Shown one piece after another: positions 1 to 14,126 of a stretch of 14,126 nucleotides of DNA. Source of the stretch: an uncultured Oscillospiraceae bacterium (GTDB lineage: Bacteria; Bacillota; Clostridia; Oscillospirales; Oscillospiraceae); the NCBI GenBank assembly GCA_934630555.1, contig CAKTXB010000028.1, positions 1 to 14,126 of the forward strand, in the 5' to 3' direction. The translations under genes were made by a program, and so were the position numbers. Each line of letters begins with the position of its first letter. Positions within the stretch are counted from its first letter, which is position 1. Under the pieces are notes generated by a model, which saw nothing but the letters and a program-made list of their open reading frames with translations, ran no database searches and was not told where the DNA came from.

Positions 1-190
1 TACCGGGGCGAAGCCCCGCACCCTCCCTTGCAGGCACTGCAAGTAAATCGTAAAACCTGTCAGGTTTTGCAAAACAAAGGGTACCGGGGCGAAGCCCCGC
101 AAACCCCGCACGACCTGTAAGGTCGCAAAACCAACAGGCCACCGGGGCGAAGCCCCGCACCCCCCCTGCGCCCCACCGGGGCGCGAAAGG
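1..190. repeat. Repeat A, copy 1: modular hairpin array upstream of mfd
   Basis: This gene-free stretch holds three copies of the 15-base palindrome CGGGGCGAAGCCCCG (4-18, 85-99, 143-157) alternating with other small hairpins: CTTGCAG/CTGCAAG (27-43, loop GCA), AAAACC/GGTTTT (52-68, loop TGTCA), CGACCT/AGGTCG (111-125, loop GTA) and GCGCCCC/GGGGCGC (168-184, loop ACC). The part from about 31 to 185 aligns well with 7579-7743 upstream of pgi, so this is a dispersed repeat. It ends directly at the mfd ribosome binding site, so it would form the 5' leader if transcription starts upstream of or inside it. A weak promoter-like pair, TTGCAG (28-33) and TAAAAC (51-56) with a 17-bp spacer, lies inside it but is not convincing. 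Function unknown. Confidence 0.8.
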
Positions 191-3200: not shown

Positions 3201-3719
3201 CTCAAGCTGCTGGAAGACGCCGTGCTCGAGCAGCGCGGCGAGCAGACGCTCAAGGAGCCCGAATGCACCGCCGACCTGAACGTCACCGCCAACATCGACA
3301 AGAATTACGTACCCTCCGGTGAACAGCGCATGGACCTCTACCGCCGCATGGCCGCCGTGCGCACACAGCAGGACGCCGATGAGCTGCTCGATGAGATCGT
3401 CGACCGCTTCGGCGACACGCCCAAGGGCGTTTTGAACCTTCTGGACATCGCGCTCCTGCGCGCCCGCGCCGCCGCGGCCGGCATGACGGAGATCGTGCAG
3501 AAGGGCGACACGCTCACGTTCACCCTCGGCGCGTTCGACTTTGCCGCCATCGCTGAGATCTGCGGCATGAAGCCCTATCAGGGCCGCGCGTTCTTCTCGG
3601 CCAAAATACCCGCCGCCATCACGCTGCGGCTCAGAAAGGGCGAGGACCCGCTCAAGCTGGCAAAAGCCCTCGTCGCCGACTACGCCGCCCGCCGCGGCGC
3701 CGCGGCGCAGGGATCCTGA
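201..3719 (+). CDS. mfd: Transcription-repair coupling factor Mfd
   Basis: This is the 1172-residue DNA translocase that removes RNA polymerase stalled at DNA lesions and recruits UvrA for nucleotide excision repair. Length is normal for Mfd. The N-terminal part is UvrB-like and contains a G-G-I-L-D-V-Y-S-P stretch around residues 177-185. An RNA-polymerase-interacting domain follows at about 497-560 ([15 protein letters not shown] and the segment after it). The superfamily 2 helicase motor has Walker [10 protein letters not shown] at 653-661, the DEEQ box at 754-757, an [10 protein letters not shown] motif III, and the [10 protein letters not shown] motif VI at 921-930. The C-terminal domain begins with a segment around [16 protein letters not shown], as expected for the UvrA-regulating D7 domain. 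The start follows a good ribosome binding site. It stands alone, between repeat A and a palindromic element that may end transcription. Identification is secure. Confidence 0.98.
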
Positions 3720-3723
3720 AAAT

Positions 3724-3865
3724 AGGGGCTGTCTCAAAATAGAAGTATCTAAAGAATAGCCCAACAAAAAAGTCGTGAGGATCCATTAAAAACCGGATCC
3801 TCACGACTTTGTCTGACTTTTGGCGGGGACTATTCTCTTGCGATCTGCATTTTGAGACAGCCCCT
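3724..3865. mobile_element. MITE-like nested palindrome between convergent genes
   Basis: A 142-bp element has perfect 17-bp terminal inverted repeats beginning AGGGGCTGTCTC (3724-3740 and 3849-3865). At its centre is a perfect 16-bp hairpin, AAAGTCGTGAGGATCC (3769-3784) with its complement at 3795-3810 and a 10-base loop. The arms between are also partly complementary (AGAATAGCCC against the complement of GGGGACTATTCT), so the whole element is one imperfect palindrome. It is clearly richer in A and T than the genes around it and encodes nothing. The ends resemble terminal repeats of insertion sequences, which suggests a non-autonomous miniature element; family assignment and a target-site duplication are not evident. 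It sits five bases after the mfd stop and is followed by six T residues, so it probably also acts as the mfd terminator. Confidence 0.65.
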
Positions 3866-3880
3866 TTTTTGCGTTTCGTT

Positions 3881-5107: not shown

Positions 5108-5902
5108 ATGAAGATCGCAGACATTCACGCCCATATTTTCCCAGACGCGCTGGCTGCCAAGGCCACCCACTCCATCGCGTCGTTTTACCACGACGACATC
5201 ATGGACTGCCGCCCGGCCAGCCTTTCATGCCTGCTGCAGGAGCACCGCGCAGCCGGTATCACCTGCGGCGTCGTCTGCTCCTCCGCCACCACCCCGGCGC
5301 AGGTGCAGCACATCAATGATTTCATTGCCAAAACGGCGCATGAAAATCCGCAGTACCTTGGCTTCGGCTCGGTCTATCCCGGTATGCCCGGCGTGGAGGA
5401 CGAGCTGGACCGGATGCTTTCCCTCGGCCTGCGCGGCATTAAGATCCACCCGGAGTTTCAAAAGCTTGCCATCGACGCGCCCGAGGCCGTCGATACCTAC
5501 CGCGCCATCGCAAAACGCGGCCTGCCGGTGCTGTTCCACATGGGCGACGCGCACTCCGACCTGTCCAGCCCCGAGCGGCTGCTGCATCTTTTGCGCCAGG
5601 TGCCCGACCTGCGCCCCATTGCCGCGCATTTCGGCGGCTGGCAGTCGTGGCAGCACGCCTATGAGCACCCGCTGCCGGACCCGGTCGTCTATGACACCTC
5701 CAGCAGCACCGCGCTCCTCTCTGCGGATATGGTGCTGCGCTTTCTGGACCGCTACGGCGAGGACCGGCTCCTCTTCGGCACGGATTTTCCCATGTGGAAG
5801 CCGCTGGACGCGGTCAATGAGCTGCGCGCCCTGCGCCTTGGCCGCGCTGCGGAGGAAAAGCTCTTTTATGGCAATTTCGCCCGCTATTTCGGGCTGCAAT
5901 GA
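5108..5902 (+). CDS. Amidohydrolase-2 family metal-dependent hydrolase
   Basis: This 264-residue protein looks like a TIM-barrel metal-dependent hydrolase of the amidohydrolase-2 (PF04909-like) group. Visible metal or catalytic positions are the HxH pair His7/His9 in ADIHAHIFP, His144 in VLFHMGD, His174 in AAHFGGW and Asp226 in FGTDFPMW. A conserved-looking GIKIHPEFQ segment (residues 110-118) also fits the family. There is no signal peptide, so it is cytoplasmic. Members of this group include decarboxylases and hydrolases acting on very different small molecules, so the substrate cannot be named. It is the first gene of a plus-strand pair with a ROK kinase 15 bases downstream, which hints at a carbohydrate or carbohydrate-derived substrate; that is inference only. 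Confidence 0.85.
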   Translation: MKIADIHAHIFPDALAAKATHSIASFYHDDIMDCRPASLSCLLQEHRAAGITCGVVCSSATTPAQVQHINDFIAKTAHENPQYLGFGSVYPGMPGVEDELDRMLSLGLRGIKIHPEFQKLAIDAPEAVDTYRAIAKRGLPVLFHMGDAHSDLSSPERLLHLLRQVPDLRPIAAHFGGWQSWQHAYEHPLPDPVVYDTSSSTALLSADMVLRFLDRYGEDRLLFGTDFPMWKPLDAVNELRALRLGRAAEEKLFYGNFARYFGLQ

Positions 5903-5917
5903 TTCAGGAGGCACATC

Positions 5918-6871
5918 ATGTATCACATCGGCGTGGACATCGGCGGCACAAACATCAAGCTCGGTCTTGTCACCGCGCAGCGGCAGCTGGCCGCGCACGT
6001 CAGCGTGCCCTTTCCGCACACCACTCCTGCCGCGGCGGCCGACGCCGTGCTGCACGCGGCTGAGCAGGCCCTGCGCCAGCTGGACGCTTCCATGCAGGAC
6101 GTTTCCAGCGTCGGCGTCATCATCCCCGGCTCGCTCGACCCCGCGTGCGAGGTCATCCTCAACGCCTATAACCTGGATTTTCACAACGTGCCTTTCCGCA
6201 CGCTCATCCGCGAGCGTTTTTTCAATGTGCCCGTCTACATGGCCAACGACGCCGACGGCGCGGCGCTGGCCGAGCTCTACTGCGGCGCGCTGCGCGGCTG
6301 CAAAACGGGCGTGCTCATGACGCTGGGCACCGGCGTCGGCGGCGGCCTTATTCTGGACGGGAAATTATTTTCCGGCGGCAAAGGCAACGGCGTGGAGCTG
6401 GGCCATATGCTCCTGCTTGACGGCGGCGCGCCCTGCACCTGCGGCAACCACGGCTGCATCGAGTCCTATTGCTCCGCCACCGCCCTCGCCCACGCGGGCG
6501 CCGTCACCATGCGCGCCCATCCCGAAAGCCTGCTCTATAAGGTTTCCGGCGGCGACGCACAGAATGTGGACGCCCGCCTTGTCACCGACTGCGCCAGATC
6601 GGGCGACCCGGCAGCCAAAGCTGTGTTTGACGACTTCGTCAGCCACCTTGCCTCCGCCTGCGCCACGATCTTCAATCTTCTTGACCCCGAGGTCCTCGCC
6701 ATCGGCGGCGGCCTGAGCGCGGCGGGTGCGTTTCTCTTTGACCCGCTCCAGCCGCTCGTCACGCAGCGCTGCTTCTACCACGCGGCGCGCGGCGCGCTCG
6801 TGCCGGCGCAGCTTGGCAACGATGCCGGGATGATCGGGGCGGCGATGCTTCACTTTAACAGCATTGCCTGA
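5918..6871 (+). CDS. ROK-family sugar kinase, probably glucokinase-like
   Basis: This 317-residue protein is a ROK-family kinase that transfers phosphate from ATP to the 6-hydroxyl of a hexose. The N-terminal phosphate-binding loop is DIGGTNIKLG (7-16), the catalytic Asp is Asp111 in ANDADGAA, a GTGVGGG loop lies at 137-143, and the sugar and zinc site has E160-L-G-H163 followed by the cysteine motif C173-T-C175-G-N-H-G-C180-I-E182. There is no N-terminal DNA-binding domain, so it is an enzyme and not a ROK repressor. Glucose is the most likely substrate; N-acetylmannosamine, fructose or allose remain possible. AGGAGG at 5906-5911 sets the start. It follows the hydrolase by 15 bases, and pgi lies downstream across an 889-bp island. 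Confidence 0.9.
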   Translation: MYHIGVDIGGTNIKLGLVTAQRQLAAHVSVPFPHTTPAAAADAVLHAAEQALRQLDASMQDVSSVGVIIPGSLDPACEVILNAYNLDFHNVPFRTLIRERFFNVPVYMANDADGAALAELYCGALRGCKTGVLMTLGTGVGGGLILDGKLFSGGKGNGVELGHMLLLDGGAPCTCGNHGCIESYCSATALAHAGAVTMRAHPESLLYKVSGGDAQNVDARLVTDCARSGDPAAKAVFDDFVSHLASACATIFNLLDPEVLAIGGGLSAAGAFLFDPLQPLVTQRCFYHAARGALVPAQLGNDAGMIGAAMLHFNSIA

Positions 6872-7044
6872 TGGCGGCGGGCTGCGCCCGTCACCGCAAC
6901 CGTGCCTCCGGCGGATTTGCCATAGTCGGCAGGCTTGCGCCCGCCCACCGTTTTTGCCTCAGTGTTTGCAACACTGCTCCTGTGCCTCCGGCGGCCCATT
7001 CTTTTCTGCCTTGCCAGAAAAGAATGGGGAGAAAAGAGGCGCTT
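6872..7044. repeat. Repeat B, copy 1, with covarying long hairpin
   Basis: This block starts at the kinase stop codon and aligns with 13970-14121 after deoC. Shared parts are GCCTCCGGCGG (6904-6914), a CAGTGTT/AACACTG hairpin (6960-6976, loop TGC), TGCTCCTGTGCCTCCGGCGG (6975-6994), and a perfect 14-bp hairpin at 6995-7008/7015-7028 with loop CCTTGC, followed by AAAAGAGGCGC. The long stem differs from that of the other copy at four positions, each compensated on the opposite arm. The right arm is A-rich and no T-tract follows, so it is not an ordinary intrinsic terminator. Short reading frames across it are not credible genes. Confidence 0.85.
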
Positions 7045-7433
7045 TAGGACGCGTGGACTTCTACCGCATTACCACTACTGAAGCCCCCAAACTTGTAACT
7101 AGTTGCAAATGAACGTCCTCTTCCAAAAGGAACTACCCCCTCCAAGCTCGCCAGAGCAACTCGCCAAGCTTGCCACTCGCTGCCTCAGAACAAGTGCCAA
7201 CAATGCCCACAACTCAAAAGCCAAGACCTCTGTAACGTATTCGCCGGAACTGCCGACCCTAAGAACCAACTCTCGTTGAAATCGGGCAACAGCGAAGCGC
7301 TTTGCCCCGCAGCAAGCACGAACATCTACAGCTCGCGCCTCCGGCGCACTCGCTCGGCAGTACAGCCGCCCAGTGTAGATCGCGCCTCCGGCGCTCTCGA
7401 ACGCACTCACGCACCCCGGGGGATTAATCCAGA
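7045..7433. other. Lower-GC spacer without a credible gene
   Basis: About 390 bases separate repeat B from a hairpin cluster. Base composition is more balanced than in the flanking genes, and no reading frame has a ribosome binding site with a plausible start and protein-like content. Visible items are an imperfect palindrome around ACTAGT (7093-7108), and two near-identical 20-mers beginning TCGCGCCTCCGGCGC (7333-7352 and 7380-7399, one mismatch), each folding as GCGCC-TCC-GGCGC. The 7-bp inverted repeat ATCTACA/TGTAGAT (7324-7330, 7374-7380) encloses the first of these. I recognise no RNA family here. Confidence 0.6.
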
Positions 7434-7578: not shown

Positions 7579-7743
7579 CAGGCACTGCCAGAATAAAATG
7601 CAAAAACCAAAGGTTTTGCAAACCCCAAAACCACGGGGTACCGGGGCGAAGCCCCGCAAAAACCCCGCACAACCTGTAAGGCTGCAAAAAACAACAGGGT
7701 ATCGGGGCGAAGCCCCGCACCCCCGCACGCCCCCAAGGGGCGC
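7579..7743. repeat. Repeat A, copy 2: modular hairpin array upstream of pgi
   Basis: This copy aligns with 31-185 upstream of mfd. It begins with the same CAGGCACTGC (7579-7588), has an AAAACC/GGTTTT hairpin with a different loop (AAA rather than TGTCA), two CGGGGCGAAGCCCCG palindromes (7642-7656, 7703-7717), an imperfect hairpin around CAACCTGTAAGGCTG between them, and the hairpin CGCCCC/GGGGCG (7728-7742, loop CAA) next to the ribosome binding site. The final hairpin differs in sequence and loop from that of copy 1 but occupies the same place. No convincing promoter for pgi is visible inside it. Confidence 0.85.
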
Positions 7744-7746
7744 AAA

Positions 7747-7753
7747 AAGGAGG
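7747..7753 (+). promoter_or_regulatory. Ribosome binding site of pgi
   Basis: AAGGAGG lies seven bases before the ATG at 7761 and four bases after a GC hairpin, the same layout as at mfd. It decides the pgi start. Confidence 0.8.
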
Positions 7754-7760
7754 AACTATC

Positions 7761-13303: not shown

Positions 13304-13969
13304 ATGTCTGAACTCACCCTGCAAAAACCGCTTTCCAAATACATCGACCACACGCTGCTCAAGCCCGACGCCACGCCGGAGCAGATCAAACGCCTGTGCG
13401 CCGAAGCCGCGCAGTACCATTTCGCGTCTGTGTGCGTCAACAGCTGCTACGCCAAGCTCGCCGCGCAGTGCCTGCATGACAGCGACGTCGCCGTCTGCTG
13501 CGTCGTCGGCTTCCCGCTCGGCAGCATGACCGCCCGCGCCATGGCCTATGAGGCCGGCTGCGCCGCCGAAGACGGCGCGGCAGAGATCGACATGGTCCTC
13601 CCCGTCGGCGCGCTCAAAGCCGGCGACGACGATACCGTCCGGGAAACCATCGCCGCCGTTGTCGAGGCCGTGCTCGGCCGCGCCATCGTCAAGGTCATCC
13701 TTGAAGCCTGTCTGCTGACCGACGAAGAAAAGGTCCGCGCCTGCAAGCTGGCCGAATCCGTCGGCGCGGCGTTCGTCAAGACCTCCACTGGCTTCTCCAC
13801 CGGCGGCGCGACCGTCCACGACGTCGCGCTCATGCGGCAAAGCGTCGGCCCCGCCGTGCAGGTCAAAGCCGCCGGCGGCATCCGCGACCGCAAGACGGCG
13901 CTGGAAATGATCGCCGCCGGCGCAGCGCGGATCGGCGCGTCCGCCGGGATCGCCATTGTGGAGGGGTGA
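13304..13969 (+). CDS. deoC: Deoxyribose-phosphate aldolase
   Basis: This 221-residue class I aldolase splits 2-deoxyribose 5-phosphate into glyceraldehyde 3-phosphate and acetaldehyde in deoxynucleoside catabolism. The N-terminal [12 protein letters not shown] segment is typical of the family. Catalytic residues are visible: Asp96 in [10 protein letters not shown], the Schiff-base Lys159 in FVKTSTGF, and Lys188 in [10 protein letters not shown]. Length matches bacterial DeoC of about 220 residues. It stands apart from other deo genes here; upstream is the exporter terminator and downstream repeat B begins at the stop codon. It may have its own promoter across that terminator. Identification is secure. 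Confidence 0.97.
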
Positions 13970-14126
13970 GGCGGGGTGCGCCCTCCGGCGGATTTTGCCG
14001 GAATCGGCAGATGGGCGCTTGCCCACCGTTCTTTCCTCAGTGTCTGCAACACTGCTCCTGTGCCTCCGGCGGCTGACTTTTTTCTGCCTTGCCAGAAAAA
14101 AGTCAGCAAAAAAGAGGCGCCGGAGC
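13970..14126. repeat. Repeat B, copy 2, truncated by the window end
   Basis: Starting at the deoC stop codon, this copy repeats the order seen at 6872-7044: CTCCGGCGGATTT, the CAGTGT/ACACTG hairpin (14038-14054), TGCTCCTGTGCCTCCGGCGG, then a perfect 15-bp stem, GCTGACTTTTTTCTG (14072-14086) and its complement (14093-14107), with the same CCTTGC loop, followed by AAAAAAGAGGCGC. The right arm is A-rich and no T-tract follows, so it does not look like a standard terminator of deoC. Confidence 0.85.

What the first reader, a model, noticed from the sequence alone, without database searches (positions are those of the whole stretch)
6995..7028. Long hairpin in repeat B shows four compensated base-pair changes and an invariant loop
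Seen directly: the stems at 6995-7028 and 14073-14106 are each perfect over 14 bp, share the loop CCTTGC and the adjacent CTG/CAG pairs, and differ at four stem positions (C-G to T-A, C-G to G-C, T-A to C-G, C-G to T-A). Every change is matched on the opposite arm and no position is left unpaired. Flanking sequence (TGCTCCTGTGCCTCCGGCGG before, AGAGGCGC after) is nearly unchanged. Covariation with a fixed loop is the usual mark of a selected fold, as RNA or as a DNA hairpin recognised by a protein. The A-rich right arm without a T-tract argues against a normal terminator. An alternative is conversion of one arm from the other by hairpin-templated repair.
Basis: seen in the sequence. Interest (0 to 1): 0.72.

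Follow-up and report, generated by a model that had tools for sequence, protein, structure and literature searches.

The report
Covarying triple-strand DNA hairpin repeat
The hairpin belongs to a widespread bacterial DNA repeat in which a third, A/G-rich strand changes in step with both hairpin arms, the sequence signature expected if evolution preserves a three-stranded (triplex) DNA fold.

Summary
In detail: two perfect 14-bp stems, one loop, four compensated changes. It missed the main feature. After each hairpin comes an 8-nt purine strand that mirrors the right-arm core, 8 of 8 positions in both copies. One of the four changes is three-way: C7001-G7022·G7031 becomes T14079-A14100·A14109.

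The hairpin belongs to a dispersed, mostly intergenic repeat family seen in Oscillospirales-like genomes, Pseudomonadota and one Fusobacterium. Over 43 distinct right arms, third-strand bases beyond position 3 match the mirrored arm at 131 of 140 sites (permuted 72±6, maximum 94). In a fixed-geometry alignment the two variable triads are C-G·G or T-A·A in 55 of 56 cells. The next bases pair with the apical loop and covary too.

That is the code of a purine-motif intrastrand triplex (class II; Holder 2015). No simple copying or arm-templated repair makes mirror repeats. Orientation is unrelated to genes in Oscillospirales (39:38), favouring DNA over RNA. Best reading: a selected, loop-clamped DNA triplex, a new A-rich variant of the BoxC/PIT/TM kind. 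Triplex formation and function are inferred, not shown.

The parts
6983..6994 (+). conserved leader TGCCTCCGGCGG, copy 1
   Evidence: same leader precedes copies in G676, G793 and others
6995..7008 (+). left (pyrimidine-rich) arm, copy 1; triplex part 7000-7007 TCTTTTCT
7009..7014 (+). apical loop CCTTGC, copy 1; 7012-7014 with 7015 (TGCC) is the candidate partner of the clamp strand
   Evidence: general rule
7015..7028 (+). right (purine-rich) arm, copy 1; core 7016-7023 AGAAAAGA
7030..7037 (+). third strand AGAAAAGA, exact mirror of 7016-7023; G7031 forms the triad C7001-G7022·G7031
   Evidence: 8 of 8 triads
7038..7041 (+). clamp strand GGCG facing 7012-7015 TGCC (3 Watson-Crick pairs and one G·T)
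   Evidence: family-wide loop-tail pairing
14061..14072 (+). conserved leader, copy 2
14073..14086 (+). left arm, copy 2; T14079 is the changed triad position
14087..14092 (+). apical loop CCTTGC, copy 2
14093..14106 (+). right arm, copy 2; core 14094-14101 AGAAAAAA
14108..14115 (+). third strand AAAAAAGA, exact mirror of 14094-14101; A14109 forms T14079-A14100·A14109
   Evidence: 8 of 8 triads
14116..14119 (+). clamp strand GGCG, copy 2, facing 14090-14093 TGCC
6916..7042 (+). 127-nt repeat unit that carries copy 1; lies 3' of the ROK gene 5918-6871
   Evidence: (D2)
13994..14120 (+). second 127-nt repeat unit (83% identical), 3' of the DeoC-family aldolase gene 13304-13969; close to the window end
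   Evidence: (D2)

Best explanation
A dispersed, mostly intergenic DNA repeat whose selected form is a three-stranded fold on one strand. The order is pyrimidine arm, loop, purine arm, short turn, then a purine third strand that runs antiparallel to the purine arm and reads it by the purine-motif code (G over C-G, A over T-A). The third strand's 3' continuation pairs with the 3' half of the apical loop and locks the fold (a pseudoknot-like clamp). Shown by sequence: the hairpin, the mirror code, the loop-tail covariation, the intergenic placement, the multi-copy state and the wide taxonomic spread. Inferred: that the third strand lies in the groove as a class II purine triplex when the strand is single-stranded (replication, supercoiling); that the fold acts at the DNA level, most likely by stalling synthesis or being recognised as a shape; and that copies spread within genomes as parts of larger non-coding repeats.
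For: Mirror rule. In 118 distinct elements (the two window copies are not among them) the third strand equals the mirrored arm at 369 of 400 sites beyond position 3 (permuted 218.6±9.5, maximum 253 of 5000). Of 90 asymmetric arms 88 fit mirror better than direct copy, 0 fit direct better, 2 tie. For the 74 of 118 that lie in loci fetched by searches without a tail constraint: 220 of 242 (permuted 115.9±8.4, maximum 146), 63 mirror, 0 direct, 2 tie. One tail per distinct arm: 131 of 140 (permuted 72.3±5.6, maximum 94 of 20000). Hairpin-only searches: perfect mirror tail at 4 of 4, 8 of 8, 20 of 40 and 4 of 6 sites in viral contigs and 15 of 20 in Burkholderiales loci; perfect direct-only tail at 0 of 78. 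Variable triads: C-G·G 28, T-A·A 27, one exception of 56. Clamp: loop-tail Watson-Crick run of at least 4 in 68 of 118, permuted mean 12, maximum 24; all four clamp pairs show two-sided changes. Within single genomes, different stem types carry matching third strands and clamps (G1149, G753, G1155). Intergenic: 84 of 88 (Oscillospirales) and 18 of 19 (Burkholderiales); no orientation bias in Oscillospirales, 39 to 38. Precedent: a class II intrastrand triplex folds in vitro (PMC4666352).
Against: No physical evidence was available. Geometry is unresolved: the lower stem (three variable pairs plus A-T and C-G) is also conserved (the three pairs fully formed in 72 of 118), yet 4 nt separate the arm's T from the third strand in 102 of 118. 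With the lower stem closed, about one nucleotide must bridge five pairs, so lower stem and in-register triplex may alternate. A-rich purine triplexes are weaker than G-rich ones (recalled), and Holder et al. saw no stable triplex in vivo even for the G/C-rich motif. In the window the clamp is only 3 pairs plus G·T, and 50 of 118 elements have a clamp run under 4. Of 31 mirror misses's count over all elements, 11 are A opposite G and 5 G opposite A; the rest are pyrimidines. In the C23 search 20 of 40 hairpins have no tail: 19 look unrelated by eye, one is cut by the contig end. In Burkholderiales the upstream gene is co-directed 10 to 5, so a transcript role there is not excluded. 44 of the 118 elements came from searches that fixed part of the tail or by similarity to a full element; leave most of these out.
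Confidence: 0.72

Rival explanations
1. An RNA H-type pseudoknot: the same hairpin with the A-rich strand crossing the minor groove and the 3' end pairing with the loop, acting in transcripts (3' end protection, attenuation).
For: The loop-tail pairing has the form of an H-type pseudoknot helix with a short first loop; A-rich third loops are common in RNA pseudoknots (recalled); the lower stem is conserved, which an RNA pseudoknot allows; Burkholderiales copies lean 10 to 5 towards the 3' side of co-directed genes; both window copies follow a stop codon in the same direction.
Against: No orientation bias in the 77 Oscillospirales elements with a called upstream gene (39 to 38). Minor-groove contacts do not ask for G over C-G and A over T-A, yet that holds in 55 of 56 cells. 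No Rfam family at the element in the window or in 8 relatives searched. Holder et al. state that purine-motif triplexes cannot form in RNA.
Confidence: 0.15
2. Folded ends of a mobile element: single-stranded DNA hairpins recognised by a transposase (REP/RAYT-like or another HUH enzyme), with the third strand part of the recognised shape.
For: Multi-copy in single genomes (98, 45, 32 and 20 pattern matches in four of 240 genomes); in G1149 the elements sit near both ends of roughly 600-850 bp non-coding repeats, facing inwards; variable stems with conserved flanks resemble REPs (recalled).
Against: No target duplication or empty site was shown. Compatible with the best explanation rather than opposed to it.
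Confidence: 0.1
3. No selected fold: related repeats copied around, arms kept complementary by hairpin-templated repair, tails similar by descent and A-richness.
For: Copies are repeats, and related copies inflate covariation; gene conversion between arms can make paired changes. None of the permutations here is phylogeny-aware.
Against: No simple copying process makes a mirror image; the mirror beats direct copy 88 to 0; the result stands with one tail per distinct arm and in hairpin-only searches over different contigs and orders.
Confidence: 0.03

Closest known systems
BoxC / PIT element / TMECO (G/C-rich class II intrastrand purine triplex; Hoyne and Maher; Holder et al. 2015)
   Same: Order pyrimidine - purine - reverse-Hoogsteen strand on one strand; purine-motif triads; multi-copy, intergenic, no strand bias; some in inverted pairs; copy number differs much among related strains (Holder's text).
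   Different: A-rich instead of G-rich; different sequence (TMECO consensus absent from the window); conserved leader and a loop-tail Watson-Crick clamp ('clamp' and 'pseudoknot' do not occur in Holder's main text); seen in Oscillospirales-like genomes, Burkholderiales, Pasteurella and Ilyobacter; one 53-nt query found none in E. coli genomes, where TMECO lives.
A/T-rich class II motifs of the ITxF database (Holder et al. 2015)
   Same: Same formal class; counted there among the 79% A/T-rich motifs with stems of 8 or more.
   Different: There only counted by composition; the authors followed the G/C-rich ones because these are rarer in scrambled genomes. No A-rich family, alignment, covariation or clamp in the parts I read. 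The window's first loop is 8 nt if the G-C closing pair is left out, above ITxF's limit of 6. I could not query ITxF, so whether it lists these sites is unknown.
H-type pseudoknot
   Same: Hairpin loop 3' half pairs with sequence 3' of the hairpin; short first loop; A-rich third loop.
   Different: Third loop copies the purine arm in mirror order base for base; orientation to genes random in Oscillospirales.
REP / BIME and MITE-type intergenic repeats
   Same: Short palindromic, dispersed, intergenic, in inverted pairs, genome-specific variants.
   Different: Extra mirrored strand; no associated transposase tested.
H-DNA (mirror-repeat triplex within double-stranded DNA)
   Same: Mirror symmetry and purine-motif triads.
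   Different: Here the third strand and both duplex strands lie on one strand, arranged as hairpin plus tail.

Membership tests
Class II intrastrand purine triplex motif (PIT/TM kind) | Pyrimidine, purine, reverse-Hoogsteen blocks in this order on one strand | tested here: met
   7000-7007, 7016-7023, 7030-7037 and the same in copy 2
Class II intrastrand purine triplex motif (PIT/TM kind) | Third strand antiparallel to the purine strand with C-G·G and T-A·A triads | tested here: met
   8 of 8 twice in the window; 55 of 56 and 131 of 140 in relatives. This is sequence potential, not a shown fold.
   Stem 8; second loop 6 (7024-7029); first loop 6 if the G-C closing pair is counted in the stem, otherwise 8
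Class II intrastrand purine triplex motif (PIT/TM kind) | Folds as a triplex in vitro (CD, NMR) | not testable with these tools
   needs synthetic oligonucleotides
TMECO / BoxC itself | Consensus CCCTCNCCC N3-6 GGGNGAGGG N3 GGGNGAGGG | tested here: not met
   0 matches in the window
REP / RAYT system | Cognate HUH transposase gene | not tested
Intrinsic terminator | G+C-rich stem followed by a run of T | tested here: not met
   0 terminator-like sites in 6860-7200; in 13960-14126 one weak site at 14012-14025, not at the hairpin (shuffles mean 0.5)
Known RNA family (Rfam 15) | Match to a covariance model | tested here: not met
   3 hits at E up to 1 in the window, all far below gathering score and none at the element; 0 in 8 relatives at E up to 0.5

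The most novel reading that the evidence does not exclude
A cross-phylum family of bacterial DNA repeats whose recognised, selected state is a locked DNA triple helix: hairpin, mirrored purine third strand and loop-tail clamp. It would be the first covariation evidence that I know of that an intrastrand triplex is kept by selection in living bacteria, and it may mark the folded ends of a so far unnamed mobile or chromosome-organising element.
Probability: 0.5. Interest if true: 0.9.

Novelty: new variant of a known kind. Interest (0 to 1): 0.8.

Why it matters
Whether intrastrand DNA triplexes matter in living bacteria is open: the known G/C-rich motif folds in vitro, but Holder et al. 2015 did not see a stable triplex in cells. 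Triad covariation is independent, genome-scale evidence that three strands are kept in register, and it yields exact predictions: a two-way change should break the fold and a three-way change should keep it. The motif is short, occurs in cultivable bacteria (plasmid records of named isolates) and is cheap to test as an oligonucleotide.

Tried and rejected
Close copies by DNA search: none in phages or plasmids with the 181-nt query. The first pattern gave 0 in viral contigs; a looser one gave 18 matches in genome contigs. The one Oscillospiraceae match (L008) reads like coding sequence by eye and its genome has no other real match; the other 17 were not read one by one, and 15 of those 17 genomes had no hairpin-plus-tail match. 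The four weak hits in 295 genomes of the order look like chance; by eye three lie in coding sequence and L022 does not. Relatives were placed by PGI (best 70% identity) after the ROK protein proved a poor guide. The six genomes nearest by PGI carry no leader-plus-ACTTTY match.

First idea for the tail, a direct repeat of the right arm or an alternative partner of the left arm, was dropped when asymmetric arms showed the mirror order. The outer stem GCCTC/GAGGC that the folding program draws in the window is not kept in relatives' tails (by eye) and was dropped as the general fold. Coding origin was dropped because A-runs of 3, 4 and 5 or more shift the frame and 84 of 88 elements are intergenic. 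The gene caller is crude: in the window it found 8 of the 10 Pfam-supported genes and replaced the other two by one antisense frame. An earlier, cruder caller put 22 of 43 elements inside frames. The plasmid records are weak support for intergenic placement: of 13 records 11 list no feature under the best place and 2 have no annotation, but at least one of the 11 has a single annotated feature in all.

Literature: sequence strings of the motif in full text (39 papers, 20 listed; 5 papers; judged irrelevant from titles and abstract starts); repeats and triplex papers (listings). Of PMC4666352 I read the abstract and parts 1, 3, 4, 5, 6 and 7 of 9 of its text, and one word search; of PMC2267715 two passages. 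Hoyne and Maher 2000 and 2002 I know from Holder's text and recall only. I found no description of this A-rich family in those searches; supplementary tables were not readable here and subscription papers are not in the library.

Full report
What is in the window. Two perfect 14-bp hairpins with loop CCTTGC lie at 6995-7028 and 14073-14106 and differ by four compensated pairs, as reported. They are part of a 127-nt direct repeat. Each follows the stop codon of a gene on the same strand: a ROK-family gene and a DeoC-family aldolase gene. Its PGI protein is 70% identical to the best relatives, in the order of G001; L008, in G001, is titled an uncultured Oscillospiraceae bacterium, so I call the group Oscillospirales-like by inference. 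Carriers of the same repeat lie in the family of G283, to which G676 belongs. The closest ROK protein cluster (99% identical) has 3 members on 2 contigs.

The missed strand. Past each right arm comes an 8-nt purine strand: AGAAAAGA at 7030-7037 and AAAAAAGA at 14108-14115. Each is the mirror image of the right-arm core (7016-7023 AGAAAAGA; 14094-14101 AGAAAAAA). The arm's purine run is one base longer, and that ninth base at the turn is not mirrored. So the two copies differ by a whole triad, C-G·G against T-A·A.

The family. BLAST over 150 genomes of the family gave 13 with a weak match; reading them showed clear relatives in G676 and G793, with leader TGCCTCCGGCGG, a variable hairpin around ACTTTY and an A-rich tail. 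The leader plus ACTTTY pattern (one mismatch allowed) occurs 37 times in G676 and 11 in G793, control 0, and 0 times in 6 other genomes. Leader plus hairpin core occurs in 15 of 240 family genomes, 239 matches in all (some elements counted twice), 98 in one genome, control 0. Hairpin plus tail without leader gave 71 stretches in viral contigs (not all are true members, for example the short ACTTTCTCCAGAAAGT group), and matches in 3 of 20 genomes: 18 in G676, 5 in G854 (a Burkholderiales MAG, L016) and 1 in G848, control 0. A 45-nt query found 48 places in 13 plasmid records of Caballeronia, Paraburkholderia, Variovorax, Chitinibacter, Pasteurella and Ilyobacter, the last a Fusobacterium relative. 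The asymmetric hairpin occurs in 21 of 240 genomes of G854's order. None was found in E. coli genomes or phage records with a 53-nt query.

Test 1, mirror or direct copy. I searched viral contigs for hairpins alone, with four asymmetric arms, so that the tail was free. A perfect mirror tail was present at 4 of 4, 8 of 8, 20 of 40 and 4 of 6 sites (one more of the 6 with one mismatch), and in the Burkholderiales loci at 15 of 20 with 3 more at one mismatch; a perfect direct-only tail at 0 of 78. Of the 20 tail-less sites of the third group, 19 look unrelated by eye and one (L223) is cut by its contig end. Over all loci, 354 hairpin hits (palindromic cores count on both strands) gave 142 with an AAA near the tail start and 118 after removing duplicates and loops outside 3-10. 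None of the 118 is from the window. Mirror identity beyond position 3 is 369 of 400 (permuted 218.6±9.5, maximum 253 of 5000). Of 90 asymmetric arms, 88 favour mirror, none direct, 2 tie. The 74 elements in loci fetched without tail constraint give 220 of 242 and 63, 0, 2. Counting each distinct right arm once, 131 of 140 (permuted 72.3±5.6, maximum 94 of 20000). By eye many misses fall on the top pair next to the loop, where the clamp begins.

Test 2, triads. In 28 sequences of equal geometry (A1), triads 1-3 are T-A·A because AAA was selected. Triad 4 is C-G·G in 15 and T-A·A in 13; triad 5 is T-A·A in 14, C-G·G in 13, and G-C·A once. Identity over the five triads is 139 of 140 at the mirror register and 43-92 of 140 at shifts of 1-3. 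Seven of the 28 rows lie in loci fetched only by the pattern, which names the tail; without their 14 cells the variable triads stand at 41 of 42. Two more rows (L062, L065) came by BLAST with the window's element.

Test 3, pairs and clamp. In A1 the outer three stem pairs, which were not selected, are paired in 28, 28 and 23 of 28 with several pair types. After the third strand the sequence pairs with the loop's 3' half: Watson-Crick runs of 4 or more in 68 of 118, against 12 expected and at most 24 in 2000 permutations; 45 of 74 in the unconstrained subset, expected 8, maximum 18. In A1 all four clamp pairs show two-sided changes, 79.5% of cells paired. Over the whole structure, paired cells (93.3% against 68.5%), cells with two-sided change (115 against 39) and the covariation score (0.626 against 0.180) exceed all 500 shuffles; the number of pairs with two-sided change (10 against 9.0) and of pair types (21 against 22.3) do not. 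Within one genome, G1149, loops CACGGA, TGCGAG, CGTCAA and CGCTGA go with tails TCCG, CTCGC, TTGAC and TCAGC; one TGCGAG copy has CTCCC instead. In the window the clamp is only three pairs and a G·T.

DNA or RNA. In Oscillospirales-like loci 84 of 88 elements are intergenic; the gene upstream of the element points with it in 39 and against it in 38 cases (crude gene calls). In Burkholderiales 18 of 19 are intergenic, 10 with and 5 against. Holder et al. report intergenic placement without strand bias for TMECO and state that purine-motif triplexes cannot form in RNA. I therefore favour a DNA fold, at moderate confidence.

Layout. In the G1149 regions fetched, elements come as inward-facing pairs near the ends of roughly 600-850 bp non-coding repeats that share sequence with one another. 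In some of these one member of the pair has lost its tail (for example L293 near 7243). This suggests spread as larger units; no enzyme was looked for.

Open problem. The lower stem is conserved too, and about one nucleotide links it to the third strand. With the lower stem closed an in-register triplex looks strained, so the two may alternate, or the third strand may lie otherwise than in textbook models. I did not model this.

Verdict. It is two thirds of a three-strand motif. The class (class II intrastrand purine triplex) is known from the G/C-rich BoxC/PIT/TMECO repeat; I did not find the A-rich, clamped, cross-phylum family or its triad covariation in the papers I could search.

Noticed in passing
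L290-L294 (G1149), e.g. L290 about 5820-5865: A second repeat in the same larger elements: CCTTCCCC..GGGGAAGGTG-insert-GGATGAGGGG. The insert is a hairpin rewritten from copy to copy: 10 distinct inserts, all 10 with a perfect stem of at least 5 bp. The G-rich blocks partly resemble a triplex motif.
   Followed up: partly
window 3719-3870: A 152-bp inverted repeat (56-nt arms, 73% complementary, 40 nt apart), outer ends AAAATAGGGGCTGTCTCAAAAT / ATTTTGAGACAGCCCC, between an mfd-like and a uridine-kinase-family gene; looks like a small non-autonomous mobile element (I1).
   Followed up: no
window 2-170 and 7612-7760: Repeats of ACCGGGGCGAAGCCCCGCA, some in 58-60 nt tandem units, just upstream of the mfd-like gene and the PGI gene (D1 and D3).
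   Followed up: no
window 6892-6991 and 13970-14060: Further short inverted repeats upstream of the main hairpin (CAGTGTT..AACACTG in copy 1; GCCGgaatCGGC and TGGGCgcttGCCCA in copy 2) that differ between the two copies; the last is called a weak terminator-like site.
   Followed up: no
L080, L098, L100, L101 (G676) downstream of the element: A second hairpin follows the element, with varying stem and similar flanks: CTTGAAACC..GGTTTCAAG-ACTTCC, CCAAAAACC..GGTTTTTGG, CAGAAACC..GGTTTCTG.
   Followed up: no
L202 and L240: The classical G/C-rich TMECO triplex motif occurs in these two loci together with the A-rich one.
   Followed up: no
L176 and L185 (G854, contigs C1 and C28): Copies lie 35 bases from a contig end in two contigs, as expected where a repeat breaks an assembly.
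   Followed up: no
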